Assembly (NCBI GenBank): GCA_030524285.1
Contig: JAUNGQ010000015.1
Location: 1 to 32,192 of the forward strand
From: Eubacteriales bacterium
GTDB taxonomy: Bacteria; Bacillota; Clostridia; Oscillospirales; Butyricicoccaceae
Direction of reading: 5' to 3'
Length of the DNA stretch: 32,192 bases
Shown: positions 16,175 to 28,735 of the stretch, one piece after another
Layout: each line of letters opens with the position of its first letter
How positions within the stretch are numbered: the first letter of the stretch is position 1
Position numbers and translations under genes: made by a program
Notes under the pieces: generated by a model
The model's database searches: none
The model's input: the letters and a program-made list of their open reading frames with translations, nothing else
What the model was told of the DNA's origin: nothing

Positions 16175-16431
16175 GGCTCCCTCGGAGAAGGGAGCTGTCA
16201 GCGAAGCTGACTGAGGGGCGCGTGCTGCTGAATGCAGCCGAGCGCATGCGAGAGAGCGCCCCGGCCAATGTAACAAAACCACTTACAGGTTTACTCCTTA
16301 CAGGTATTCTGAAACCATGCCGAGCTTGCTTTATGGAAGCAAGCTTGCGGCATGATAATCTGTTTCAGAATACACTGCACCGAGGTCCGTCTTCGCCTGC
16401 GGCGAATCCACCTCCCTCAAAGAGGGAGGCT
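16175..16431. repeat. Composite A-core-B hairpin element with large central cruciform
   Basis: The left end is a type A module (16175-16218): GGCTCCCTC-GGAG-AAGGGAGC, then GTCAGC-GAA-GCTGAC, then TGAGGGG. The right end is a type B module on the minus strand (16383-16430), with TTCGCC-TGC-GGCGAA and CCTCCCTC-AAA-GAGGGAGG. Between them is a 164-nt core with a big inverted repeat at 16305-16372. There TATTCTGAAAC pairs with GTTTCAGAATA, CATGCCG with CGGCATG, and AGCTTGCTT with AAGCAAGCT around a 5-nt loop. The element lies between two convergent genes and may also stop transcription. No protein is encoded. Confidence 0.75.
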
Positions 16432-16438
16432 TTATTGT

Positions 16439-17242
16439 TTATGTTTCATTTGCATTTAGAAGTTCCGACAGCGGCATATAATCATAGGTATTCAACACTT
16501 CGGCGGAGCCTGTTCCGCTGATGGTAGTTCCGATCAGGCTTCCGTTTGTATTGTAGCTGTATTCCCAGATGGCATTGATTTGCGCTGCTGCATTGTATGC
16601 GGTCTGGCGGATGAGATTACCGTCGGCATCATAGTCATTTTCTGACCAGCCTTGCAGCATTTCCATGGCGGCGTCTTCATAGGTTGTTGTCTTGATGAGC
16701 AGGTTATCAGAATTGTAATCAGATACAATGACCATTTCCGGATTATCGGAATCATCCATCATGGTACGTTTGGTTTCATTGCCGTTTTTATCGTTTTCGA
16801 CGTCATACCAATAGGATGTCGTGTCATCGGTATAGGTTTCCTTTGTCAGGAATCCGTCTTCGTCATAGGTAAAGGTTTCCTGATACTGCTGTATATCTTC
16901 TGCATCATAACATGTCCGGCTGATCATATTACCGTTGTCGTATTCCATTGTGCTATGGGTCTGTACTGCGCCCTCGGGATCATAGGTGATTTCCTCGGTT
17001 TTCAGACCATTTTCATTATATGTATATTCTGTCCAGCCTAACAGCGTGCCAGTGGCGGAATAATTGGTGGCTTTGGTTTGACTACCATCAGTATTATAAT
17101 CATAGGTAATATAGCTGCCATCCGAGCTGGTTTGTTTGATACAAACCTCTTCGCTCTGATGATCGGGTCCATTGCCGCCACAGCCCGAAAGCAGGGTTAC
17201 AACAAGGATACCACTGAGAGCAGCGGAAAAAATGTGTTTCAT
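16439..17242 (-). CDS. Lipoprotein with YD-like repeats
   Basis: The 267-residue protein starts MKHIFS, has a hydrophobic signal and a lipobox LSGC with the lipidated Cys at 21. The mature part consists of short repeating units such as YDYNTDGS, YTYNENGL, MEYDNGNM, FTYDEDGF and NDYDADGN. These resemble the YD repeats of RHS-type surface proteins, so an extracellular beta-rich fold is likely. It is anchored to the outer face of the membrane; its function is unknown. I chose the ATG at 17242, with GAGG about 7 nt upstream, over the GTG at 17251. It has its own promoter. Confidence 0.8.
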   Translation of the reverse strand: MKHIFSAALSGILVVTLLSGCGGNGPDHQSEEVCIKQTSSDGSYITYDYNTDGSQTKATNYSATGTLLGWTEYTYNENGLKTEEITYDPEGAVQTHSTMEYDNGNMISRTCYDAEDIQQYQETFTYDEDGFLTKETYTDDTTSYWYDVENDKNGNETKRTMMDDSDNPEMVIVSDYNSDNLLIKTTTYEDAAMEMLQGWSENDYDADGNLIRQTAYNAAAQINAIWEYSYNTNGSLIGTTISGTGSAEVLNTYDYMPLSELLNANET

Positions 17243-17272
17243 AGGGGTCACCTCATCTTGTATTGTATATCC

Positions 17273-17301
17273 AGAATAGCATAAATGTTAGCGGAAAACA
17301 A
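17273..17301 (-). promoter_or_regulatory. Promoter of the YD-like lipoprotein gene
   Basis: On the minus strand TTGTTT (17301-17296) and TATTCT (17278-17273) are 17 nt apart, about 30 nt before the start codon. Confidence 0.5.
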
Positions 17302-17310
17302 CTGGAAACC

Positions 17311-17346
17311 AAAAATATCCCCGGTCAGTATAATACTGATCGGGGG
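17311..17346 (-). terminator. Terminator of the AraC regulator gene
   Basis: Reading the minus strand, a long hairpin (17346-17319; CCCCGATCAGTATT with its partner ATACTGACCGGGG) is followed by ATATTTTT (17318-17311), just after the araC-type stop at 17359. Confidence 0.8.
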
Positions 17347-17358
17347 AAATAGATAGGA

Positions 17359-18195
17359 TTAATTTTTACGGTTGCGCTTCTGCCATTCGCGCGGCGGGAT
17401 GCCGAATACCTTATGGAAGGCACGGGAGAAATGCAACTGGTTTGGATAGCCGACAGAACGTGCAATGGTTGCGATCGGTGCAGCGCCGCGCTCCAGATAG
17501 CTGCAAGCAACGCTCATACGCTGACGAATGAGGTATTCCTGCGTGGTAATGCCGGTAGCATCGCGGAACAGCTTGCCCAGATAGCTGCGGTTCAGGCCGC
17601 AGTACTGCGCAACATCCTCAACGGAAATATCCTGTTGATATCTTGCTTTGATATAACGGATGGACTTGTCGACATAATACTGCTGGAGATTGGAAACCTT
17701 CGGCTGGCACGGACGCGATGTCTCGCACAGCAGGCTGTCCAGCAGTTCCAAAGCGATTCCTGTGGCACGCAGCGGGCCATATTCCTGTTCCGGATCGGTG
17801 AGCCTTGTGAATGCAGCAACCGTTTCCGAAGTATCACCGGAGGTGGTGAGGCTCAGTACCGGCTTGTGCGGAGTCAGGCCTGCACGGGTCAGTGTTTCCG
17901 GAAGGGCGCTGCCGTCCAGCTCCAGCCACATAGCGGTAATCTGCTGTCCGTCCAAACCGGAGCAGTTGACACAAACGTTGGGGAAAAATACAACAATGGA
18001 ACCGGGTTCGATGGCATGCTGGGAAGAACCAAGCTTGATTGTTCCGGCCCCACTGGTTACATATGTGACAACGGTGCGCTCATTCAGAAAAGGTAGAAGC
18101 GGGGTATCTGTGCCGCCAAGGTATCGCCCATACTGAACCAGAGAAATATCCGCAAAGCCCGCGGAATCGCAGAAGTGAGTTAATATTTCGGTCAT
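17359..18195 (-). CDS. AraC family transcriptional regulator
   Basis: This 278-residue protein has an N-terminal cupin-like sensing domain (about residues 20-150, with SGAGTIKLGSSQHAIEPGS) and a C-terminal AraC/XylS double helix-turn-helix (about residues 180-275). The second has the diagnostic SVGYPNQLHFSRAFHKVFG followed by PPREW. Such proteins usually activate sugar-utilisation genes when the cupin binds a ligand. The ATG at 18195 follows AAAGGAGAG by about 6 nt; an upstream ATG at 18219 lacks such a site. No obvious target operon is adjacent, so the regulon is probably elsewhere. The gene is monocistronic. Confidence 0.93.
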   Translation of the reverse strand: MTEILTHFCDSAGFADISLVQYGRYLGGTDTPLLPFLNERTVVTYVTSGAGTIKLGSSQHAIEPGSIVVFFPNVCVNCSGLDGQQITAMWLELDGSALPETLTRAGLTPHKPVLSLTTSGDTSETVAAFTRLTDPEQEYGPLRATGIALELLDSLLCETSRPCQPKVSNLQQYYVDKSIRYIKARYQQDISVEDVAQYCGLNRSYLGKLFRDATGITTQEYLIRQRMSVACSYLERGAAPIATIARSVGYPNQLHFSRAFHKVFGIPPREWQKRNRKN

Positions 18196-18285
18196 AAGAA
18201 TCTCTCCTTTGTCATACATGGTTGCGCAAGGGGAAAAACGCAGCCATGATGCAGTTATTCGCTCTCAAATCTCTCAATAGTAATC

Positions 18286-18314
18286 ATTATACGGAAAAAA
18301 GCAACATATTTCAA
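18286..18314 (-). promoter_or_regulatory. Promoter of the AraC regulator gene
   Basis: On the minus strand TTGAAA (18314-18309) and a perfect TATAAT (18291-18286) are 17 nt apart. The leader to the ATG is about 85 nt. Confidence 0.7.
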
Positions 18315-18646
18315 GAAGAAAAACAAAATTTTCGTTAAAATGATGAAACTGCATTTAGAGATAAAAAAAGAATAAAAATCGATCAAATGCGACATTTTGC
18401 ATCAAACGGAAAATAGGGAGCAGAACAGACCTGCGAAAATATCACATAGGATAATAAGCCGGAAAAGTTAGAAAAAATGTGTACCAAATGCGAAAATTGC
18501 TGAAAAAAGAGCGGTGGAGATAAAAAGTAACATTGACGGGTTTTAAAATTTGCAATAGGTAATCTGCAAGCAGCAGGGAAAAACATATTATAGAAAATTC
18601 TGGGAAATCAGGATGTAATAAATTTTTATAAATTGTAGAGAAAGCC

Positions 18647-18675
18647 TTGTTTCGGAAATCCAGTTGTGATATCCT
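18647..18675 (+). promoter_or_regulatory. Promoter of the pantothenate operon
   Basis: TTGTTT (18647-18652) and TATCCT (18670-18675) are 17 nt apart. The predicted start near 18682 gives a leader of about 150 nt. Confidence 0.5.
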
Positions 18676-18697
18676 AGACAAGATGGGTGGTATTGTA

Positions 18698-18740
18698 GCC
18701 GGATGAAAAGCCGGCGCGAACTGCACCGGATGTTTTTTTT
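18698..18740 (+). promoter_or_regulatory. Alternative hairpins with T8 tract in the pan leader
   Basis: CCGG-C-GC (18711-18717) can pair with GC-A-CCGG (18723-18729), and a T8 tract at 18733-18740 follows, giving a weak terminator-like structure. The same CCGGC (18711-18715) can instead pair with GCCGG at 18698-18702. The two folds exclude each other. Whether this controls transcription is inference. Confidence 0.35.
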
Positions 18741-18750
18741 ACTTTTTTCG

Positions 18751-18789
18751 GCACACAGCTCATATTGCAAAAGCAAATGGGACTGATGC
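18751..18789 (+). ncRNA. Candidate pan RNA motif
   Basis: A single hairpin with two bulged adenosines lies in the 5' leader of the pantothenate genes. The loop AAAA (18769-18772) is closed by TTGC/GCAA. A18764 is bulged on the left, then CTCAT (18759-18763) pairs with ATGGG (18777-18781), A18782 is bulged on the right, and CAG pairs with CTG. After a small internal loop, GCA (18751-18753) pairs with TGC (18787-18789). The known pan motif is a hairpin with bulged As found upstream of pantothenate operons, so context and shape agree. I could not compare it with the family covariance model. Confidence 0.6.
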
Positions 18790-18832
18790 ACAGGGAATCG
18801 CCGCCGGACAGGTTTGTACGGAGGTGGTTCAT

Positions 18833-19675
18833 ATGAAAATTGGTTTTATTGGCGCGGGCAAGGTTGGAACATCGCTGGGCAAGCTGTTCCGACAGCACGA
18901 TGTTACGGTTACCGGCTACTATAGCCGTACCCGGGAACACGCCGAAGAGGCAGCAGCATTTACAAGGACGCAATGCTTTGATTCATTGAAGAATGCAGTT
19001 GATGCGAGCGATACCCTGTTTATAACGACACCGGATGGTGTGATTGCACGTGTGTGGAATGACATAGCGTCGCTGCCGATCAAAAGTAAATGTATTTGCC
19101 ATTGCAGCGGAGCGCTGCCCAGCTCGATCTTTGCGAATGCGGACGAGCATGGCGCACGTGTTAGTTCGGTTCATCCGCTGCTGGCAGTCAGCGACAGGTT
19201 CTCGTCCTGGCAGCAGCTGGAAGGTGCGTTTTTTACACTGGAAGGAAGCTGCGCTGCGGAAATGGAAGCGCTTATGCAGCACTGTGGTGCGCAGACAGCA
19301 ACCATCCATGCAGAGGATAAGGCACGCTACCATCTGGCGGCGTGTGTGGTGAGCAATCTGGCAGTCGGTTTGTCTGACTGGGGAATGAAGCTGCTGGAAC
19401 AATGCGGCTTTACGAAGCAGCAGGCGCTTACAGCCTTGTCGCCGCTTATTCTGGGCAATGCACAGGCAATCTGTGACAAAGGCCCGCAGGCGGCGCTCAC
19501 CGGCCCGGCAGAACGGGGGGATATGGGAACCATCCAATCGCATATGGCTTGCCTTGATCAGGAGGATCAGGCGCTTTATGCACTGCTGACACGCAAGCTG
19601 TGCGATCTGGCACAGGAGAAACATCCTGACAGAGATGATACTACCCTCAGAACATACTTGGAGGGATTGTCATGA
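18833..19675 (+). CDS. panG: Rossmann/DUF2520 protein, probable ketopantoate reductase (PanG-like)
   Basis: The 280-residue protein starts with an NAD(P)-binding Rossmann fold, [11 protein letters not shown] (GxGxxG at residues 7-12), and continues into the DUF2520 region with [35 protein letters not shown] and LTGPAERGD. It heads an operon with panB, panC and panD. No classical panE is in the window. PanG-type proteins of this architecture supply ketopantoate reductase activity in organisms lacking PanE, so this is the likely missing step (ketopantoate to pantoate). The ATG at 18833 has GGAGG (18820-18824) upstream; the GTG at 18824 overlaps that site. The stop overlaps the panB ATG (ATGA), showing coupling. 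Confidence 0.82.
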
Positions 19676-20499
19676 AAAACACAGTATTAACGTTCCGGCA
19701 GGCAAAACAAGAAGGAAAAAAACAGACCATGCTCACAGCATACGACTATTCGACTGCCAAGCTGATTGATGAGGCAGGCATCAACTCGATTCTTGTCGGT
19801 GACTCGCTGGGCATGGTCTGCCTTGGTTATGAGGATACCCTGTCTGTTACCATGGAGGATATGATCCATCATACGAGGGCCGTTACCCGCGGCGCAAAAA
19901 ATGCACTGGTTGTGGCAGATATGCCGTTCATGTCCTATCAGGCATCCATTTACGATGCTGTAATGAATGCAGGACGTTTGATTAAGGAAGGCCGTGCACA
20001 GGCAGTCAAGCTGGAAGGCGGCGCAACCGTATGCGAGCAGATCAAGGCAATTGTCGATGCTTCTATCCCGGTATGCGCCCATATCGGCATGACCCCGCAG
20101 TCCGTCAATGCTTTCGGCGGCTTTAAGGTACAGGGCAAGGGCGAAGCTGCTGCACAGAAGATTTTAGATGATGCGCGCCGCGTAGAAGAAGCTGGCGCAT
20201 TTGCGGTTGTTCTGGAATGCGTTCCGGCACCGCTGGCAGCAAAGATTACTGAAACACTGGAAATTCCGACAATCGGTATCGGCGCCGGTCCGGATTGTGA
20301 TGCACAGGTTCTGGTATATCAGGATATGATTGCCATGTTCTCTGATTTTACCCCGAAGTTTGCAAAGACCTTTGCCAATGCAGGCGCAGTGATGATGGAA
20401 GGCTTCAAGGCTTATGATAAGGAAGTCAAGGATGGCACCTTCCCGGCAAAGGAGCATACCTTCAAGATGGACGAGACCATTATTGATAAATTGTATTAA
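19672..20499 (+). CDS. panB: 3-methyl-2-oxobutanoate hydroxymethyltransferase
   Basis: PanB converts alpha-ketoisovalerate to ketopantoate using methylene-tetrahydrofolate, the first committed step of vitamin B5 synthesis. The 275-residue product carries the metal-binding VGDSLGMV (Asp44) and [10 protein letters not shown] (Asp83), then [20 protein letters not shown] and [15 protein letters not shown], all family hallmarks. It overlaps the panG-like gene by 4 nt. It is separated from panC by 469 bp of hairpin repeats, unusual for an operon that is normally tightly packed. Confidence 0.98.
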
Positions 20500-20968
20500 A
20501 TGAAATGGCTCCCTCGTCTGAGGGAGCCTAAGAACCGGAGTTTTCAATATGATGCACCAAAGCCTCCCTCTTTGAGGGAGGTGGCACGGCGCGAGCCGTG
20601 ACGGAGGGAGTTTGCAAAGTAACGCTTGTGATATCAACGAAAACAGCGGTGCAGAAGACACATGCGATGGAACTCCCTCAGTCAGCTTCGCTGACAGCTC
20701 CCTCGAAGAGGGAGCCTAAGAACCGGAGTTTTCAATATGATACACCAAAGCCTCCCTCTTTGAGGGAGGTGGCACGGCGCGAGCCGTGACGGAGGGAGTT
20801 TGCAAAGTAACGCTTGTGATATCAACGAAAACAGCGGTGCAGAAGACACATGCGATGGAACTCCCTCAGTCAGCTTCGCTGACAGCTCCCTCGTCTGAGG
20901 GAGCCTTATGGTGCGGCTCCATTACGTTAGCCGGAGGATTAAATTATAATATAAAGGAAGTATAAACT
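20500..20968. other. panB-panC intergenic gap
   Basis: The gap contains only the repeat array and, to the right, a TATAAT at 20945-20950 too close to the panC ribosome site to be a clear promoter. No gene is visible. Confidence 0.7.
20507..20905 (+). repeat. 188-bp tandem duplication of paired B-A hairpin elements
   Basis: Two units with a 188-bp period fill most of the panB-panC gap. Apart from one substitution (G20554 versus A20742) and a change in one hairpin loop, they look identical. Each unit holds a type B module on the plus strand (20563-20610 and 20751-20798), a 62-nt core, and a type A module on the minus strand (20673-20716 and 20861-20905). A head hairpin at 20507-20528 starts the array. 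GAGGGAGTT at each B tail is complementary to AACTCCCTC at each A tail. No reading frame with a credible start is present. The near identity implies a recent duplication. Confidence 0.85.
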
Positions 20969-21814
20969 ATGAAAATCGTTAAGACGATAGAAGAGGTACG
21001 CGAGCAGGTAAAGGCTTGGCGCAAAGAAGGTCTGTCTGTTGGTCTGGTGCCGACAATGGGCTATCTGCATGAAGGACATCAGAGCCTGATCGCCCGTTCC
21101 GTGGCAGAAAATGACCGCACGGTTGTATCCGACTTTGTCAATCCGATCCAGTTCGGGCCGACAGAAGACCTTGCAACGTATCCGCGTGATCTGGAGCGTG
21201 ACGCAGCTCTGTGTGAGGCAACCGGCGCAAACCTGATTTTCAACCCGGAAGCAGAAGAAATGTATGCGCCGGATTTCTGTACCTATGTTGATATGGATCA
21301 TCTGACCAAGGGGCTGTGCGGCGCATCCCGCCCAATCCACTTCCGCGGCGTATGCACGGTTGTCAGCAAGCTGTTCCATATTGTACAGCCGGATCGCGCA
21401 TATTTTGGACAAAAGGATGCGCAGCAGCTCGCTGTTATTCGCCGTATGGTACGTGATCTGAATATGCCGTTGGAGATTGTCGGGTGCCCGATTATCCGCG
21501 AGGAGGACGGCCTGGCAAAAAGCTCCCGTAATACATATCTCAGCGCAGAAGAGCGTCAGGCTGCCCTGTGCCTGTCCCGCGCACTGAACAAGGGCAAAGC
21601 TGCTATCGAAGCAGGCGAGACAGACGCTGCAAAGGTAAAGGCAATCATTACTGCTGAAATCAAGGCGGAGCCGCTGAGCAGAATTGATTATGTGGAAATC
21701 GTTGACTGGAATAATCTGGAGCCGGTTGCTTCCACAGAAGGCTCGATCCTGACTGCCATTGCTGTTTATATCGGTAAAACCCGTCTGATTGATAACTTTA
21801 TTATCGAACGCTAA
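20969..21814 (+). CDS. panC: Pantoate-beta-alanine ligase
   Basis: PanC joins pantoate and beta-alanine with ATP to give pantothenate. The 281-residue enzyme shows the adenylate-forming HxGH motif in PTMGYLHEGHQSL (His34, His37), FVNPIQFGP, HFRGVCTVV, YFGQKDAQQ (146-150 core) and the KMSKS-like KSSRN at 184-188. AAAGGAAG precedes the ATG by 8 nt. panD follows after 13 nt. Whether it depends on readthrough across the repeats from panB is not clear. Confidence 0.98.
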   Translation: MKIVKTIEEVREQVKAWRKEGLSVGLVPTMGYLHEGHQSLIARSVAENDRTVVSDFVNPIQFGPTEDLATYPRDLERDAALCEATGANLIFNPEAEEMYAPDFCTYVDMDHLTKGLCGASRPIHFRGVCTVVSKLFHIVQPDRAYFGQKDAQQLAVIRRMVRDLNMPLEIVGCPIIREEDGLAKSSRNTYLSAEERQAALCLSRALNKGKAAIEAGETDAAKVKAIITAEIKAEPLSRIDYVEIVDWNNLEPVASTEGSILTAIAVYIGKTRLIDNFIIER

Positions 21815-21827
21815 GGAGGATTAAGAC

Positions 21828-22232
21828 GTGACGATTTCCATGCTGAAAGGCAAGATTCATCGTGCTGTTGTCAAGCAGGCAGAGCTGAACTATGTTGGCT
21901 CCATTACAGTTGACAGTGAGCTGTTGAATACTGCTGGTATATTGGAGTATGAAAAAGTACAGATCGTAGATATTAACAACGGAAACCGTTTTGAAACCTA
22001 TACCATTGCCGGAGAAGCTGGCAGCGGTATGATCTGCCTGAACGGTGCAGCGGCACGCTGTGTGTCCGAGGGTGACCGCATTATTATCATGTCCTATGCG
22101 GATGTGACACCGGAGGAGGCCAAGACGCACAAGCCGAAGGTTGTCTTTGTGGATGATGACAACCATGTCTGCCGTGTGACACATTATGAGAAGTACGGCG
22201 CGCTGTATGATGATGAGTGTGATGAGAAGTAA
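21828..22232 (+). CDS. panD: Aspartate 1-decarboxylase precursor
   Basis: PanD makes beta-alanine from aspartate, feeding PanC. It is a pyruvoyl enzyme that cleaves itself at a Gly-Ser bond, seen here as YVGSITVD (Gly24-Ser25). The 134-residue product starts at a GTG with AAGGAGG 8 nt upstream. This start places the cleavage site and MLKGKIHR at the same positions as in the well-known E. coli enzyme, which supports GTG over the internal ATG at 21840. NGAAARC and the metal-free C-terminal barrel residues look intact. It completes the panG-like/B/C/D set. Confidence 0.97.
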
Positions 22233-22274
22233 GCCATTCATATTGATTTGCAGGCGAGCTTTGGTGGACAGGTA

Positions 22275-23342
22275 ATGAGAAACATCAGCATACATCGTTC
22301 GGCGTTGATGGGCTTTGCAGCTTTGTGGATTTATTATTTTCACATCGTACCGGTAGAATTGTTTTCGCGGGGACAGCAGCCTTCTGAGCTGGCGATCTAT
22401 TTCCATGGCGAGGGCTTTTGCGGTGTTGATATTTTCCTGTTGGTATCCAGTTTTGGTCTGGCATATGCGTTTCAAAAGGAACGCGTTACCGATGCCAGAA
22501 GCTACCGGAAGTATCTGGTTCGGCGGTTCTCACGGATTTATACCGTGCTGCTGCCGACAGCGCTGGTGATTGGTCTGGTAGACAATTGGAGCCTGCGGGA
22601 ATTTTTTGGACGGATTACAGGTCTGCGTCAGTTGTGGATTGATGTGTATGACTTTTTGTGGTTTGTCCCGTGTATCCTGCTGTTTTATCTGCTGGCGCCT
22701 TTCTATTATGCCCTGTTTTATCGGGCCAGGCGGAAAGGAACCTTTACACTGGTTGCCATTGTACTGATGCTGGCGATCAATTTTGCGCTGCGGAATGTGG
22801 CAAGATACGATCTGTATGGGATTCTGACCCGGATACCGGTGTTTCTGCTCGGTTTTTATTTTGGCCATTTGAGTATAGAGGACAAAAAACTCACAGCCTG
22901 CGGTACATTGGGCGCTGTTGTATGCCTCATGGCAGGGCTGTGGTATAGCTTTTGTCTCTCCCAGCAAAAGACTGTATGGTTGTTGCCGGCATATAATGCA
23001 CAGGTGAACCTGTTCATTGCTCCATCGATTGCACTGCTGCTGGCAAATCTGTGTCAGTTGGCAAAGGAAAGCAGCATACCTAAGATGGTAAAGCGGATTG
23101 GCAGGGGGATCTATGCGGTGTTTGGCTTTTTCGGCGCTATCAGCTTTGAGTTTTATGTTGTACAGGAATGGGTATGGCTCAAGGTATGCAATTCTTCCAC
23201 ACTTCAGGCGTTGCTGGGCAGTAGTATGGAGCGTATGCAGGCAGGCTGCTTTTTGCTGACACTGGTGGGTGCCGTAGGACTGCACTGGATAGCTGGAAGA
23301 CTTTCCCATCCTGCAATCAGCAGGAAAAAAAGAAAATGCTGA
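22275..23342 (+). CDS. Acyltransferase 3 family membrane protein
   Basis: The 355-residue protein looks like a multi-pass acyltransferase 3 (OafA/YrhL-type) protein that transfers acyl groups to surface polysaccharides or other cell-envelope molecules. The N-terminus has FAALWIYYFHI, with the family histidine, and GEGFCGVDIFLLVSSFGL, then RRFSRIYTVLLP. About ten hydrophobic segments follow, and the tail is basic (SRKKRKC). I chose the ATG at 22275 over a TTG at 22248; its ribosome site (GGTGGACAGG) is only fair. It lies 42 nt after panD and may be read with the pan operon without a functional link. The acyl donor and acceptor are unknown. Confidence 0.85.
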   Translation: MRNISIHRSALMGFAALWIYYFHIVPVELFSRGQQPSELAIYFHGEGFCGVDIFLLVSSFGLAYAFQKERVTDARSYRKYLVRRFSRIYTVLLPTALVIGLVDNWSLREFFGRITGLRQLWIDVYDFLWFVPCILLFYLLAPFYYALFYRARRKGTFTLVAIVLMLAINFALRNVARYDLYGILTRIPVFLLGFYFGHLSIEDKKLTACGTLGAVVCLMAGLWYSFCLSQQKTVWLLPAYNAQVNLFIAPSIALLLANLCQLAKESSIPKMVKRIGRGIYAVFGFFGAISFEFYVVQEWVWLKVCNSSTLQALLGSSMERMQAGCFLLTLVGAVGLHWIAGRLSHPAISRKKRKC

Positions 23343-23397
23343 AAAGACTGGGAAAAGGCAGCTTGAAGCACGAGAAAACGCAAATAATATGAAAGGA

Positions 23398-23420
23398 ACG
23401 GGCATTGCAATGCCCGTTTT
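23398..23420 (+). terminator. Terminator after the acyltransferase gene
   Basis: ACGGGCATT (23398-23406) pairs with AATGCCCGT (23409-23417), with TTTT to 23420. Confidence 0.85.
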
Positions 23421-23423
23421 GTC

Positions 23424-23452
23424 TTGTCCGCACAAAATCTTTCTGATATAAT
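23424..23452 (+). promoter_or_regulatory. Promoter of the GLUG/SLH protein gene
   Basis: TTGTCC (23424-23429) and a perfect TATAAT (23447-23452) are 17 nt apart, about 34 nt before the ATG. Confidence 0.75.
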
Positions 23453-23485
23453 AAAAGTAATATATTGTAACACGGGAGGGACATG

Positions 23486-25102
23486 ATGAAAAAAAGAATG
23501 ATGGCATTTGTCCTGGCGGTAACATGCATGTTTTCCGGTATGGTAACGGCACAGGCGGCTGGCAATGAAGTCTATAGCATTGATAGTGCGGCGGATCTTA
23601 TACAGCTTGCAGAAGATATCAATAGCGGCAAAACCTATGCAAAGGTTGAGCTGAATGCAGATATCACGCTCAATCGCGATGTCATTGCGGCGGATGGGAC
23701 GCTGAACAGCGGAACATTTCAGGAATGGATACCGATCGGCACAGAGAAAAATCCATTTACCAGTACCTTTGATGGACGTGGACATACGATTTCCGGTCTG
23801 TATGTAAAGAATAACAACACTTGTCAGGGTTTATTTGGTGTTTTGTCCAATGCAATTGTTTATAACGTCACTGTTCAAGACAGCTATATTGATGCAAACA
23901 GTCATGTTGGCGCAGTGGCAGGCTATGCGAAAAAGGATACAATCATCAGCAATTGCTATTCCCTGCATAACTATCTGTATACAACTGTAACACGGACCGG
24001 AGGCATCGTTGGCTGGACAGATCAATCGGATGTATACAACTGCACCAACAGCAGCTATTGCTACAGCAAACGTTGCTCCGGCGGCATTGTCGGTGACGTT
24101 TACAGCAACGGCGGGATCTATAACTGCATGAACAGCGGTAAAATAGAAGGCGGCGAGCTTGTTGGCGGTATGTCTGGCGGTACAACGAGCGCAGTCATTA
24201 CAAACTGCCTGAATATAGGCGAAGTCAGCGGCTATCTGATGGCGGGAGGCGCCGGAAGCCGGACACTGACCAATTGCTATTCTGTGAAAAATGACACGTT
24301 GAACAGCAATTGCTCGATGGGTACCAGCTCCAAAACGGCAGTTACCTTTACGGAACCTGCTGCTGTTTTAAGCAGCGCAGTGACAGTAGATGGCACATCC
24401 TATACAAACGCTGTCGATGCGCTCAATGCATGGGTTCATGCTCAAACGGACGGTATCGCATATGTTAGCTGGCAACAGGACGATTCCTATCCCTATTTGG
24501 AGAAAACCGTACTTCCTGCTGTGCGCAGCATGACGGAGAATACCTTTACCGACGTCAGTCTGCGGGACTGGTTCTATAATCCGGTTAAGAAAGCTTATGA
24601 TGAAAACCTGATGATGGGTACCAGCACGACAACCTTTGAACCGAAGATTGTTGTTACCCGCGGTATGGTAGCACAGATGCTGTATAACAAATCCGGCAGA
24701 CCCAATTATACACAGGGAATCGCATTCTCCGATGTAAAATCCAGTGCATGGTATTATGATGCTGTGCAGTGGGCAAGTGAGAATGGCTATGCGGCAGGCT
24801 ATGGCAATGGCAAGTTTGGACCACAGGATGAAGTAACCCGTGAACAGTTTGCACAGTTCCTGTACAGCTATTATTATGACGGTAATACACCGGCTTCCTA
24901 TACTGGCCCCATGAGCAAATTTACGGACGCTGAAAGGGTTTCCGGCTGGGCAAAAAATGCTGTTGCATGGGCTGTCAGCAATGGCATTATCAACGGCAGA
25001 ACGCAGAGCAATGGCAGTTTGGAGATTGCGCCGAAGGGTACGACAACCCGCGCGGAAGCAGCTGCCATGCTGTCGAGCTATACACAGCTTGCAGCACGCT
25101 GA
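23486..25102 (+). CDS. Secreted S-layer-homology protein with GLUG repeats
   Basis: The 538-residue protein has a signal peptide (KKRMM, hydrophobic stretch, AQAAG; cleavage near residue 24). The middle carries GLUG-type repeats (GGIVGWTD, GGIVGDVY, GGMSGGTT) alternating with YNCxNSG-like strands, suggesting a beta-helix or adhesin-like stalk. The C-terminal third (from about residue 354) has three S-layer homology domains starting FTDVSLRDWFY, FSDVKSSAWYYDAV and FTDAERVSGWAKNAV, each with a TR[EGA]-type motif, which anchor proteins to cell-wall polymers. GGAGG is 6 nt before this ATG (an ATG at 23483 is too close). Probably a cell-surface binding protein; the ligand is unknown. Confidence 0.9.
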   Translation: MKKRMMAFVLAVTCMFSGMVTAQAAGNEVYSIDSAADLIQLAEDINSGKTYAKVELNADITLNRDVIAADGTLNSGTFQEWIPIGTEKNPFTSTFDGRGHTISGLYVKNNNTCQGLFGVLSNAIVYNVTVQDSYIDANSHVGAVAGYAKKDTIISNCYSLHNYLYTTVTRTGGIVGWTDQSDVYNCTNSSYCYSKRCSGGIVGDVYSNGGIYNCMNSGKIEGGELVGGMSGGTTSAVITNCLNIGEVSGYLMAGGAGSRTLTNCYSVKNDTLNSNCSMGTSSKTAVTFTEPAAVLSSAVTVDGTSYTNAVDALNAWVHAQTDGIAYVSWQQDDSYPYLEKTVLPAVRSMTENTFTDVSLRDWFYNPVKKAYDENLMMGTSTTTFEPKIVVTRGMVAQMLYNKSGRPNYTQGIAFSDVKSSAWYYDAVQWASENGYAAGYGNGKFGPQDEVTREQFAQFLYSYYYDGNTPASYTGPMSKFTDAERVSGWAKNAVAWAVSNGIINGRTQSNGSLEIAPKGTTTRAEAAAMLSSYTQLAAR

Positions 25103-25124
25103 AAACAGAAATAACGGAAAAAGG

Positions 25125-25155
25125 ACGGGCGCAGCGAGGTAGCTGTGCCCGTTTT
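25125..25155. terminator. Terminator between the convergent SLH and HAD genes
   Basis: ACGGGCGCAGC (25125-25135) pairs with GCTGTGCCCGT (25142-25152) around GAGGTA, then TTT. A short A-rich flank on the left lets it act weakly in the other direction. Confidence 0.8.
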
Positions 25156-25182
25156 ATCTACCAGCTGGAACATTTGCCTGTT

Positions 25183-25866
25183 TTATCCAATCAGATATGC
25201 CAATGCCTGTCCGATATCAGGGAAGTTGACGTCCACTTTATCCTCCTGCGCCACATGCACACCGATGGCATAGCCTGCATAATCAAACATCGGATAATCA
25301 TTCACACCGTCGCCAACAGCAATGACGTTTTCTGGTGGGATGTCGAGCAGTTTTCCGAGGTAGGCCATACCGTTGTATTTATTCACGCCGCACGGTACAA
25401 TATCGAAGGAATCGGCATGGCGGTATACCCGGACATCTGTTACATGCGGCTTGTTCTTTTGCAGACAGTCTGCGATGATGTCAAATTCCGCCTGATTTTT
25501 TGGAAATGGCGTGAGCGCCACGAGATTCGGCTGATACCATATATGAGGCAGCAGAGTATTGATTTTTGTGCGTATGAAATCAATGCTCTGCTTTGCTTTT
25601 TGAGAATAGGGAAGGATATAGAAATCCCTTGGCGGAAGGTCAACACCGATTTGAATGACGGCACCGTTTTCTCCGACGAGGATAGGCCGAGTCAAGCCGA
25701 GCTGGCGTGCAAAGCCGCACAGATAATCCACCGGCTTGCCGGAAACAATCGCAATCCGATAGCCCGACGCCTCCAACAGCCGCAGCTGGTCAACGTGCTC
25801 TGGGAGAATCCTCTTGCCGATCTCTGCCAGTGTACCGTCCAAATCAAATGCAAGCAGCTGTTTCAT
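25183..25866 (-). CDS. HAD-IIB family phosphatase
   Basis: This 227-residue protein has the HAD motifs AFDLDGTLAE (Asp8, Asp10), IVSGK (motif II) and AVGDGVNDYPMF (motif IV), with a middle cap typical of the sugar-phosphatase-like IIB group. VGENGAVI after motif II is also characteristic. The substrate is probably a phosphosugar or related compound, but that is not determinable. Its ATG overlaps the stop of the SDR gene upstream (ATGA at 25866-25863), so the pair is translationally coupled. It is the second HAD-IIB gene of the window; the other is at 15350. Confidence 0.9.
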   Translation of the reverse strand: MKQLLAFDLDGTLAEIGKRILPEHVDQLRLLEASGYRIAIVSGKPVDYLCGFARQLGLTRPILVGENGAVIQIGVDLPPRDFYILPYSQKAKQSIDFIRTKINTLLPHIWYQPNLVALTPFPKNQAEFDIIADCLQKNKPHVTDVRVYRHADSFDIVPCGVNKYNGMAYLGKLLDIPPENVIAVGDGVNDYPMFDYAGYAIGVHVAQEDKVDVNFPDIGQALAYLIG

Positions 25867-26621
25867 TTGTTCTTTCCCGCCTGAATGCTATGGACAATGC
25901 GCAGCAGGGGCTTTTCCGGTACGAAACGGGAGAAGACAGCGCCCAGCTTAACCATGGTGCCCGGGATAATCAGCAGCTTTCCGGCAAGGGTCTGCTGGAT
26001 TGCGAGCCTTGCTACATAATGACTGGGATGCGCTTTGACAGAGAAGCCGCCAATACCGGCATGCTGATTAAATTCCGTATCCACCGGACCGGGGCACAGA
26101 CAGCTGATCGTAACCGAGCTTCCCATCGAACGGAGCTCTTCATAAATAGCCTCGCTCAGACGCACAACATAATTCTTGGTTGCATAATAGGTGGAAAGCA
26201 TCGGTCCTGCCATAAAACCGGCGGAGGATGCAACATTTAAAATATGTCCTTCATCGTTCTCGATAAAATCCTGCAAAAACAGCTTAGTTAGAATATGGAC
26301 TGCCTTGATGTTGACATCAATCATCTGCATTTCACGGTTCAGATCTGTATCAGTAAAATTACCGTATAAGCCGAAGCCGGCAGCGTTCACCAACAGGCTG
26401 ATATTCTGGCCTCTGGTGTGCTCGTACAGCCAGCGGCAGTTACTTTCTCTGGAAACGTCGCAGACATAGATGCGGCAGGGTGTACCCAACTCACGCGACA
26501 GCTTTTCCAGACGATCCCGGCGGCGGGCAACCAACAGCAGCCGCCAGCCACGGCGGCTTAGCTCGCGGGCAATGTCCCGTCCAATGCCGGAGGATGCTCC
26601 GGTAATCAATGCGGTTTTCAT
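25863..26621 (-). CDS. SDR family NAD(P)-dependent oxidoreductase
   Basis: This 252-residue protein is a classical short-chain dehydrogenase. It shows the nucleotide loop TGASSGIG (about residues 7-14), the NAAG-type NAAGFG, the catalytic Ser in NVASSAGF and the Tyr/Lys pair in YYATKNY, followed by PGPVDTEF. The arginine-rich stretch after beta-2 (VARRRDRLEKL) suggests NADPH preference. The ATG at 26621 has GGAGG (26635-26631) upstream; a longer frame from 26642 was rejected because it begins before that site. The physiological substrate is unknown. It is cotranscribed with the HAD gene, perhaps removing or reducing the same metabolite. Confidence 0.92.
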   Translation of the reverse strand: MKTALITGASSGIGRDIARELSRRGWRLLLVARRRDRLEKLSRELGTPCRIYVCDVSRESNCRWLYEHTRGQNISLLVNAAGFGLYGNFTDTDLNREMQMIDVNIKAVHILTKLFLQDFIENDEGHILNVASSAGFMAGPMLSTYYATKNYVVRLSEAIYEELRSMGSSVTISCLCPGPVDTEFNQHAGIGGFSVKAHPSHYVARLAIQQTLAGKLLIIPGTMVKLGAVFSRFVPEKPLLRIVHSIQAGKNK

Positions 26622-26664
26622 AGCATGGTACCTCCATATCAATGAATTTTTTTTCGTTGTATCT

Positions 26665-26670
26665 ATTATA
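26665..26670 (-). promoter_or_regulatory. Probable -10 box of the SDR-HAD unit
   Basis: TATAAT on the minus strand (26670-26665) lies 44 nt before the SDR start codon. No good -35 box is visible. Confidence 0.45.
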
Positions 26671-26840
26671 GCATGTGAGGGGAGCTTTGCCTATAGAAGC
26701 ATAAATATCAGGAAGCTGCGCAAGCTACTTGTACATGAAAATCTGCCAAAAAAAGCTGTGTATAACCATGTGCAAAACAGTAAATTTTCCATTTTTTCCG
26801 CAGCTTTACAAATTATTCACAGAAAATCCGGGTCTTTCGC

Positions 26841-26869
26841 TTGACAAGGCGGGAGTTGGGTGGTATCTT
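26841..26869 (+). promoter_or_regulatory. Heat-shock operon promoter
   Basis: TTGACA (26841-26846) and TATCTT (26864-26869) are 17 nt apart, immediately upstream of the CIRCE operator. Confidence 0.8.
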
Positions 26870-26873
26870 GTAT

Positions 26874-26900
26874 TTAGCACTCGGGAACCTTGAGTGCTAA
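26874..26900 (+). promoter_or_regulatory. CIRCE operator (HrcA binding site)
   Basis: TTAGCACTC (26874-26882), a 9-nt spacer, and GAGTGCTAA (26892-26900) match the CIRCE consensus perfectly. It overlaps the expected transcription start, so HrcA bound here would block transcription of hrcA-grpE-dnaK-dnaJ; release upon heat stress follows from the known system. Confidence 0.98.
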
Positions 26901-26954
26901 CACTCCGAAATAGACAGTGCCAAAGCATCCGGAATCCATCAGGAGGTGAGACCG

Positions 26955-28001
26955 GTGGAGCTGTCCGCACGAAAAAAACTGATTTTAAAAACGGTCATCA
27001 GTGACTACATCCGTACAGCAGAGCCGGTAGGCTCGAAAGCGCTGGCAAGCCGTCCGGAGCTGCGGTTTTCTTCGGCAACCATCCGAAATGAAATGAGCGA
27101 GCTGGAGGAAATGGGATTTTTGGAAAAGCCGCACACCTCGGCAGGACGAATTCCATCCCCGGCGGGTTACCGCCTGTACGTCGATGAGCTGATGGGTATG
27201 GCGGATCTGAGCGCGGCAGATATTGACCGTATCAATTCGGTTACCAAGCTGAAGGTGAAAGAGCTTGACCGCATGGTTTCCGAAGCCGGAAAACTGATTT
27301 CCAATCTGACCGATTATACAACACTGGCTGTGACGCCGTATATGCAGCGCGTCACCATACGTAAATTCCAGATTATTTGTGTCAGTCCTTTGGACTTTGT
27401 TATCGTCGTTGTCACAGATAGCGGCGTGGTCAAAAATAAGATGCTGCGTACCGCAACGCCGGTTACGTCAGACGAAGCAGAGCTGCTGACCTATGTACTC
27501 AATCAGACGTTAACCGATATTCCGATTGATGCCATTACACAGGAGCGGTTTGATATCGTCCGTCGGGCGGCAGGCGCGACGGCATTGCTGTCGCTGATCG
27601 CAGAGTTCCTTGATGAATTTATTGAGGAAATGAGCGAACAGAAGGTATTTTTGCAGGGCGCCTCCAAGCTGCTGGCCTATCCGGAATACCGCGATGTGCA
27701 TAAGGCGCAGGAGCTGCTGGATTTTATCTCGGACGAAAGCAATGTCCCGGCGCTGCGTACCTTTACGCGGGATATCGACGGTGTACGTATTACCATTGGC
27801 CCGGAAAACGGCAGAGGCCCGCTGCAAAGCGCCAGCATGGTATATGCCACCTATAATATCGGCAATATGGGACGCGGCCTGATCGGCATTGTCGGCCCGA
27901 CACGTATGGATTATGCCAAGCTTTCTGCAAGGCTTGCATTGTTCTCGAAGGGCCTGAACCGCTTGATTGCAGAAACATTCTTTGATGAAGACGACAAGTA
28001 A
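26955..28001 (+). CDS. hrcA: Heat-inducible transcription repressor HrcA
   Basis: HrcA represses class I heat-shock genes by binding CIRCE and needs chaperonin for activity. The 348-residue product begins with a winged-helix N-terminus (ARKKLILKTVISDYI, then EPVGSKALAS, SSATIRNEMSELEE) and continues into the HrcA-specific region with HTSAGRIPSPAGYRLYVD and GPENG. GTG at 26955 is the start because AGGAGG (26941-26946) lies 8 nt upstream; the GTG at 26946 overlaps this site. It is the first gene of the operon and regulates it through the CIRCE directly upstream. Confidence 0.97.
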   Translation: MELSARKKLILKTVISDYIRTAEPVGSKALASRPELRFSSATIRNEMSELEEMGFLEKPHTSAGRIPSPAGYRLYVDELMGMADLSAADIDRINSVTKLKVKELDRMVSEAGKLISNLTDYTTLAVTPYMQRVTIRKFQIICVSPLDFVIVVVTDSGVVKNKMLRTATPVTSDEAELLTYVLNQTLTDIPIDAITQERFDIVRRAAGATALLSLIAEFLDEFIEEMSEQKVFLQGASKLLAYPEYRDVHKAQELLDFISDESNVPALRTFTRDIDGVRITIGPENGRGPLQSASMVYATYNIGNMGRGLIGIVGPTRMDYAKLSARLALFSKGLNRLIAETFFDEDDK

Positions 28002-28069
28002 GCATATTGCTTGCATAGCATACTATGAACCGCGCCGCAGGGATATCGCGGTGATGGAGGAGGAACACC

Positions 28070-28615
28070 ATGGAAACCAAAGACAGCGTAGAGCAGGAAA
28101 CTGTTCAGCAGGACGTTGAGACTGCTGCTGCCGAAGAAGCAAAAGCAGAAGAAGTGGCAGAACAGCCGCAGGAAACAGCAGAGGAAAAGCTGCAAAAGCA
28201 GCTGGATGAGCTGAATGACCGCTATATGCGCATGGCAGCTGAGTATGATAACTACCGTAAACGCGCCGTCAAGGAGCGTGATCTGATCCGTTCCGAGGCA
28301 ACCGGCAAGGCATTGACTGCCCTGCTTCCGATATATGATAATCTGGAGCGTGCACTGGCACAGGAAACAGCTGATACCGAATATAAAAAGGGTGTTGAGA
28401 TGACAGCGCGTCAGTTTGATTCCGCATTGGAATCGCTGGGCGTAGAGATCATTACAGCAGAACCCGGCAGTGCATTTGATCCGACTGTCCACAATGCAGT
28501 GATGCATATCGAGGACGAGGAACTGGGCGAAAGCTGTATTGCGGAATGCTTCCAGAAGGGCTTCCGCCACGGTGACAAGATCATCCGTACCGCGATGGTC
28601 AAGGTTGCAAACTAA
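28070..28615 (+). CDS. grpE: Nucleotide exchange factor GrpE
   Basis: GrpE releases ADP from DnaK to reset the chaperone cycle. The 181-residue protein has an acidic, flexible N-terminus (Glu/Gln/Ala-rich to about residue 38), a long helical dimerisation segment through EYDNYRKRAVKERD, and a C-terminal beta region with EIITAEPGSAFDPTVHNAVMH. That region ends in the expected FQKGF and IIRTAMVKVAN. GGAGGAGG lies 5-8 nt before the ATG. A repeat element lies between it and dnaK. Confidence 0.97.
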   Translation: METKDSVEQETVQQDVETAAAEEAKAEEVAEQPQETAEEKLQKQLDELNDRYMRMAAEYDNYRKRAVKERDLIRSEATGKALTALLPIYDNLERALAQETADTEYKKGVEMTARQFDSALESLGVEIITAEPGSAFDPTVHNAVMHIEDEELGESCIAECFQKGFRHGDKIIRTAMVKVAN

Positions 28616-28626
28616 GGCCTTTATTT

Positions 28627-28735
28627 GGCTCCCTCAGAGGAGGGAGCAGTCAGCACCAGCAGCGCTGGCTGAGGGAGTATGGACTCCTTCCGGCTCCGCT
28701 GGTTCGGCAGAGCCACCTTTCTCGAAGAGAAAGGC
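28627..28735. repeat. Compact A-B composite hairpin element between grpE and dnaK
   Basis: A plus-strand type A module (28627-28677: GGCTCCCTC-AGAG-GAGGGAGC, then CAGC...GCTG, then GAGGGAG) is followed after 4 nt by a minus-strand type B module (28682-28735). The B head hairpin has CCTTTCTC (28716-28723) and GAGAAAGG (28727-28734). Both strands of its stem differ from the usual CCTCCCTC/GAGGGAGG while pairing is retained, which suggests that structure is conserved. Confidence 0.75.

What the first reader, a model, noticed from the sequence alone, without database searches (positions are those of the whole stretch)
16175..28735. Modular A-core-B miniature element with outward-facing hairpins and interchangeable cores
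Type A modules (head hairpin GGCTCCCTC/GAGGGAGC, second hairpin around GTCAGC, GAGGGAG tail) and type B modules (head CCTCCCTC/GAGGGAGG, a different second hairpin, GGAGGGAG tail) occur as opposite-strand pairs with tails facing inward. This is seen at 16175-16431 (core 164 nt), twice at 20563-20905 (core 62 nt) and at 28627-28735 (core 4 nt). The same ends flanking different cores is what a cassette-like or MITE-like element would show. The pairing is read directly from sequence; mobility is inference. I recall similar CTCCC/GAGGG hairpins in gut Oscillospirales genomes but know no named family.
Basis: partly seen in the sequence, partly recalled or inferred. Interest (0 to 1): 0.75.

Follow-up and report, generated by a model that had tools for sequence, protein, structure and literature searches.

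The report
Paired repeats with triple-helix-like ends
Short paired DNA repeats in a gut bacterium look like stripped-down copies of a tiny element whose two ends are written so that one DNA strand could fold into a triple helix, and the single gene inside the full-length version, a small DNA-cutting enzyme, may be what spreads them.

Summary
A and B modules are abundant (127 head palindromes, reversed control 0) and pair tails-inward: all 11 strict inward pairs in this genome are A+B, gap 60-62 nt. Two things go beyond the finding. (1) Each module is Y arm-loop-R arm-linker hairpin-tail, and the tail mirrors the purine arm, following the code of an antiparallel purine triplex. Tails fit their own heads better than other heads (0 of 100,000 permutations reach it; direct register 3,642). 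This is a hairpin-linked version of the published bacterial intrastrand triplex repeats. (2) In relatives, paired modules enclose one small gene, DUF559 (EDxHD/Vsr-like nuclease), B upstream and A downstream. Triplex motifs flank DUF559 in 68 of 79 loci fetched from species genomes and 20 of 26 loci from plasmid/phage records, against 7 of 142 and 2 of 52 shifted windows. Two of the three window sites are element-free in most congeners. Best reading: non-autonomous derivatives of a DUF559 element with triplex ends. That DUF559 moves them is inferred; several repeat-rich genomes lack a DUF559 hit. No structure model could be run.

The parts
20507..20529 (-). lone A-type head hairpin (no linker or tail), left border of the tandem array
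20563..20610 (+). B module 1: Y arm, loop, R arm, linker hairpin, third-strand tail GGAGGGAG
20611..20672 (+). 62-nt core 1
20673..20715 (-). A module 1: tail TGAGGGAG facing the core
20716..20750 (.). spacer between tandem units
20751..20798 (+). B module 2
20799..20860 (+). 62-nt core 2
20861..20904 (-). A module 2
28628..28677 (+). A module in the grpE-dnaK gap
28684..28734 (-). variant B module (CCTTTCTC/GAGAAAGG, tail GGAAGGAG), 7 of 8 triads
16175..16219 (+). damaged A module (tail TGAGGGGC)
16298..16385 (.). hairpin insert splitting the B tail; same insert in five loci of this genome
16386..16430 (-). B module without intact tail

Best explanation
The A-core-B units are non-autonomous (MITE-like) members of a family whose full form is [B module]-DUF559 gene-[A module]. 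Each module reads 5'-Y arm, loop, R arm, linker hairpin, third strand-3'; as single-stranded DNA it could form a hairpin whose major groove is filled by the tail as an antiparallel purine-motif triplex. Shown by computation: module architecture, mirror/triplex code, inward pairing, A/B polarity around DUF559, DUF559-triplex association in several phyla, element-free orthologous sites. Inferred: that the fold forms in the cell; that the DUF559 nuclease recognises the folded ends or the hairpin-triplex junction and nicks or cuts there; that copies then spread and duplicate in tandem through repair or replication. The B tail sits where the gene's Shine-Dalgarno should be, which would explain why the two ends differ.
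For: Mirror code: own tails 6.46 of 8 against 5.15 for other heads, 0 of 100,000 permutations; direct register 3,642 of 100,000; again for hairpins near DUF559 in other phyla, 0 of 20,000. Motif at the DUF559 gene: 68 of 79 against 7 of 142 shifted windows; 20 of 26 against 2 of 52; 19 of 23 against 0 of 41. DUF559 and repeats occur together: 13 of 14 strong DUF559 genomes have repeats, 6 of the other 46 do, p 6.5e-8. Core lengths of 138 distinct inward pairs cluster near 60 and near 351 nt. Of 66 loci with a clear ATG, 33 have an inward motif ending within 20 nt before it, third strand starting with G in 33 of 33; inward 3' motifs start with T in 34 of 39. Empty orthologous sites: panB-panC 8 of 9, grpE-dnaK 9 of 10 congeners. 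Nuclease relatives 3hrl 5.8e-24 and mobile-intron protein 3r3p 5.4e-4.
Against: No movement was observed and no fixed target duplication found. Repeat-rich genomes without a DUF559 hit: G005 27, G008 43, G023 13 heads. In G017 and G039 the heads counted do not match the ends seen at their DUF559 genes. The core is not shown to derive from DUF559. Five copies keep a B tail split by an insert. One family, GGGGAAGG, keeps an A over G. In other phyla motifs face outward about as often as inward (13 against 11). Published in vivo footprinting saw no triplex at the E. coli motif. Permutations are not corrected for shared ancestry.
Confidence: 0.6

Rival explanations
1. The triplex-type repeats spread by other means (host replication and repair, or an unseen transposase) and DUF559 is a passenger or a gene that tends to lie beside them.
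For: Repeats without a DUF559 hit in G004, G005, G008, G018, G019, G023; core not derived from DUF559; a DUF559 protein has a host role proposed in Caulobacter (passages).
Against: DUF559 lies between the paired ends with constant spacing and polarity and with the motifs in several phyla; no other gene recurred there in the loci I looked at, and the genome has no Y1 transposase hit.
Confidence: 0.27
2. The modules work in RNA: bidirectional terminators or a switch in which the tail competes with the R arm for the Y arm.
For: Strong hairpins; at 16175 the element stands where several congeners have a terminator-like hairpin (by reading).
Against: Competition needs a tail equal to the R arm (direct repeat); variants follow the mirror. 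Side effects on transcription remain possible.
Confidence: 0.07
3. The mirror relation reflects purine-rich composition or shared ancestry of a few families rather than a fold.
For: Most arms share GGGAG; about 20 head groups come from related genomes; no tree-based correction was made.
Against: Permutations keep composition and still never reach the observed fit; changes in opposite orders (GAGGAAGG/GGAAGGAG, GGGAGAGA/AGAGAGGG, AAAGAGGG/GGGTGTTT) each keep the code; the same in other phyla.
Confidence: 0.06

Closest known systems
Intrastrand triplex repeats: TMECO/ITxF (Holder et al. 2015, PMC4666352; abstract, parts of sections 10, 15, 18, 20 and passages read) and the PIT elements of Maher and colleagues (as cited there)
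   Same: Y-loop-R-loop-R' layout with class II purine triads; intergenic; in E. coli two types, and five close inverted pairs always of type A with type B
   Different: Here the second loop is a 14-30 nt hairpin, beyond their 1-6 nt search; paired ends frame a DUF559 gene, whereas they report no transposase or integrase remnants
REP/REPIN-RAYT and BIMEs (recalled; also named)
   Same: Inverted hairpin pairs, tandem arrays, one small DNA-acting gene as possible driver
   Different: No Y1 transposase hit in this genome; mirror-coded tail; nuclease of another fold
MITEs (recalled)
   Same: Short, non-coding, inverted ends, many copies, longer gene-bearing relative
   Different: No transposase and no fixed target duplication found
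EDxHD homing endonucleases such as I-Bth0305I; Vsr-like DUF559 proteins
   Same: Same nuclease superfamily; gene linked to mobility in the intron case
   Different: Not in an intron or intein; framed by triplex-type ends; many non-coding copies

Membership tests
Intrastrand triplex repeat (TM/PIT) | R' compatible with R as antiparallel purine third strand | tested here: met
Intrastrand triplex repeat (TM/PIT) | short second loop (1-6 or 0-10 nt in the published searches) | tested here: not met
   linkers are hairpins of 16-24 nt in the window; short loops are seen in other phyla
Intrastrand triplex repeat (TM/PIT) | stable triplex in vitro | not testable with these tools
   no assay; published for TMECO only
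MITE | paired inverted ends around a short non-coding core, many copies | tested here: met
MITE | target site duplication | tested here: not met
   no consistent repeat
MITE | longer autonomous relative with the same ends | tested here: inconclusive
   DUF559-bearing form has such ends; autonomy not shown
REPIN/RAYT | Y1 (RAYT) transposase in the genome | tested here: not met
   this 73% complete genome only; relatives not searched
EDxHD / Vsr-like nuclease (for DUF559) | sequence similarity to solved members | tested here: met
   (3hrl strong, 3r3p weak); fold prediction never ran, machine busy
Homing endonuclease element | cuts an empty site and is copied into it | not testable with these tools
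   no assay

The most novel reading that the evidence does not exclude
A cross-phylum class of minimal mobile elements exists whose ends act as intrastrand DNA triplexes and whose only gene is a DUF559 nuclease; the intrastrand triplex repeats of E. coli, Neisseria, cyanobacteria and others are its non-autonomous remnants, the two published motif types being its two ends.
Probability: 0.5. Interest if true: 0.93.

Novelty: new variant of a known kind. Interest (0 to 1): 0.83.

Why it matters
Intrastrand triplex repeats have been counted in thousands of genomes without an explanation for their spread; the 2015 survey says that no remnants of transposases or integrases were found beside the E. 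coli motif. A small nuclease gene lying between paired motifs in several phyla gives a concrete candidate and makes the question testable. The head-tail mirror covariation is also evidence, independent of biophysics, that selection may act on a triple-helical DNA fold.

Tried and rejected
Y1 transposase: no hit in this genome. Long A-A spans in G013 as a transposon: ordinary genes such as selA/selB lie between. Core as a deletion derivative of DUF559: not significant. Target duplication: none consistent. Rfam: only tRNA and the pan motif in the window. E. coli ycjD as a strain-level empty site: 3363 of 5426 genomes have a place covering at least 80% of the query, but in the three other strains opened, efflux and TetR-family genes lie beside fabI, so it is not a simple empty site. 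The first module finder mis-set the register and was replaced. PADLOC gave weak partial matches only. Weak PDB hits to toxin B chains were taken as chance and not followed.

Selections. The 23 relatives' loci are the strong ones of 29 matches; six weak ones were left out. The 26 other loci are 25 of 38 plasmid and 1 of 3 phage hits, picked by organism before I saw their flanks; L261 was left out of the 17 and is in the 26; L116 and L261 are long proteins. The fixed-register table has the 42 distinct head/tail pairs left of 292 modules after asking for a clear linker end and merging identical pairs. Arms had to be purine over 7 nt; tails were not selected. The code also allowed G on T. One search counts both strands of each palindromic head. 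One search uses overlapping loci fetched for matches to the element or DUF559, and its finder asks for 7 of 8 triads; the less biased pairing count is. The loci are scored with a finder that asks for the triplex code, hence the shifted-window control.
Full report
What is there. The window is contig C22 of a 1.56 Mb, 73% complete draft genome. The intact copies at 20563-20904 read, on each module's own strand: pyrimidine arm, 3-4 nt loop, purine arm (head hairpin); a linker hairpin; an unpaired purine tail. The head palindrome occurs 127 times in the assembly and 0 times with the pattern reversed; the fuller module pattern 68 against 0. The 156-nt B-core-A unit gives 119 matches, 29 of them nearly full length, many in tandem at 183-189 nt. 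In the strict genome-wide list, 26 neighbours lie within 300 nt: 11 face inward, 9 outward, 6 the same way; all 11 inward ones are A with B, gaps 60-62 nt. The copies at 16175 and 28628 are damaged or variant.

The tail as a third strand. Heads and tails pair off as GAGGGAGC with TGAGGGAG (A), GAGGGAGG with GGAGGGAG (B), GAGGAAGG with GGAAGGAG, AAGGGAGG with GGAGGGAT, AAGGGGGC with TGGGGGAT, GGGAGAGA with AGAGAGGG, GAGGAGGG with GGGAGGAG, AAAGAGGG with GGGTGTTT. The tail mirrors the purine arm, with A answered by A or T and C by T. Triads GGC, AAT and TAT are those of the published purine-motif search; T over C is recalled. Over 27 purine-arm groups the own fit is 6.46 of 8, other heads 5.15, and 0 of 100,000 permutations reach it; in the direct register, which a competing-hairpin model needs, 3,642 do. 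In a fixed register A is answered by A or T in 83 of 96 cells, G by G in 175 of 221, C by T in 14 of 19. Shared ancestry is not corrected for. One family, GGGGAAGG, keeps an A over G. The linker hairpin changes sequence while staying paired.

A gene between the ends. A G013 locus held a 126-aa DUF559 gene between A and B. Of 60 relatives, own genome included, 14 have a strong DUF559 hit (E below 1e-20, my cut) and 13 of these also have repeat matches; of the other 46, 6 do (p 6.5e-8). A scan of the species-genome collection gave 79 DUF559 loci. A triplex motif lies at the gene in 68 of 79, against 7 of 142 windows shifted by 900 nt; in the relatives' loci 19 of 23 against 0 of 41; on both sides in 37 of 79 and 7 of 23. 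The 138 distinct inward pairs have cores clustering near 60 and near 351 nt, the latter the gene; 92 are A with B, 14 A-A, 9 B-B, 23 others. Of 66 loci with a clear ATG, 33 have an inward motif ending 3-17 nt before it (31 of them 3-7 nt); its third strand starts with G in 33 of 33 and holds GGAGG or GAGGG in 32. Of 39 inward 3' motifs, 34 start with T. So B and A look like the upstream and downstream ends of a gene-bearing element. In 33 of the 66 no such 5' motif was found.

Beyond Clostridia. Of 26 DUF559 loci from plasmid and phage records (Deinococcus, alphaproteobacteria, cyanobacteria, E. coli and others), 20 have a triplex motif at the gene against 2 of 52 shifted windows; on both sides in 8. 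The misses are L247, L248, L260, L263, L302, L303; L247 and L263 have motifs further out or below the threshold. Nearby head hairpins taken without any tail criterion again fit their own tails (0 of 20,000 permutations; direct register 2,642). Linkers there are mostly 2-4 nt, sometimes hairpins. Where annotated, DUF559 sits between sufB and sufC, between transhydrogenase genes, between paaD and paaZ, and at different places in the hpa operon of three Deinococcus species, one species' occupied junction being a 4-nt gene overlap in another. Motifs face outward 13 times and inward 11 times in 17 of these loci, while in the 79 they face inward 96 to 23; I cannot explain the difference.

Mobility. 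At panB-panC, 8 of 9 congeners with both genes adjacent have 20-68 nt and no module at the threshold (G004's gap holds a short GC hairpin); the ninth, G006, has an element of another family. At grpE-dnaK, 9 of 10 have 40-48 nt and none; G008 has a B module alone. At the 16150 site the finder reports nothing in 9 congeners, but it also misses the window's own damaged copy; by reading, none of the nine printed stretches has an A-B pair, G006 has a short similar hairpin, and the neighbouring gene differs in several. These are species-level comparisons, so borders are not exact, and no consistent target duplication was found. Counts of two head types partly follow the ends of the resident DUF559 element: G000 126 GAGGGAG and 0 AAGGGAG, G013 67 and 0, G001 0 and 20, G043 29 and 30; G015 0 and 3, two of the three being that element's own ends. 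G017 (11 and 1) and G039 (29 and 1) do not follow, and G005, G008, G023 and G004 (27, 43, 13 and 9 heads of either type) have no DUF559 hit.

Mechanism. The DUF559 profile matches 3hrl strongly and the mobile-intron protein 3r3p weakly. One paper calls a DUF559 gene a member of the EDxHD homing-endonuclease family (passage); another shows a DNA damage response that depends on a DUF559-domain protein in Caulobacter mutants (passages). I infer that the nuclease recognises the folded ends or hairpin-triplex junctions, and that cutting followed by repair or replication spreads and duplicates the element. No step of this was observed.

Known or not. Holder et al. (abstract, sections 10, 15, 18, first part of 20, passages) describe intrastrand triplex motifs in 5246 genomes and plasmids; 23 copies in E. 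coli MG1655 of two types, five inverted pairs always type A with type B; a stable triplex in vitro, none seen by in vivo footprinting; and no remnants of transposases or integrases nearby. DUF559, endonuclease and Clostridi do not occur in the main text. The library holds 14 papers with DUF559 (listing); none also holds 'inverted repeat', none holds both ycjD and triplex, and none of the 14 is among the 14 listed for intrastrand triplex and coli. Within those searches the link of DUF559 with triplex ends was not found in print; most subscription papers are not in the library.

Noticed in passing
window 16298-16385; L095, L096, L104, L106: An ~85-nt inverted-repeat insert (TACAGGTATTCTGAAACC...) sits inside the B tail in five loci of this genome, with two different cores; it may be a second repeat family or a sub-family marker.
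   Followed up: partly
window 18684-18789: pan motif RF01749 upstream of the pantothenate genes.
   Followed up: no
L024, L028, L033, L036 flanks: Some A-B units are enclosed by an outer inverted repeat (AGCTTGTCGAAA ... TTTATCGACAGACTG), perhaps another repeat into which they inserted.
   Followed up: no
L152, L154, L156, L157, L158, L206, L221: A ~130-nt sequence beside the A end is conserved between loci whose other flanks differ, as if it travels with the element.
   Followed up: no
L086-L089 (G010): A third module type (GGGAGAGA / AGAGAGGG) lies back to back with A heads, so an element may have more than two end types.
   Followed up: partly
E. coli sapF-fabI junction (L264, L265, L267): Strains differ: K-12 type has ycjD (DUF559) there, while three others have efflux and TetR-family genes next to fabI.
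   Followed up: partly
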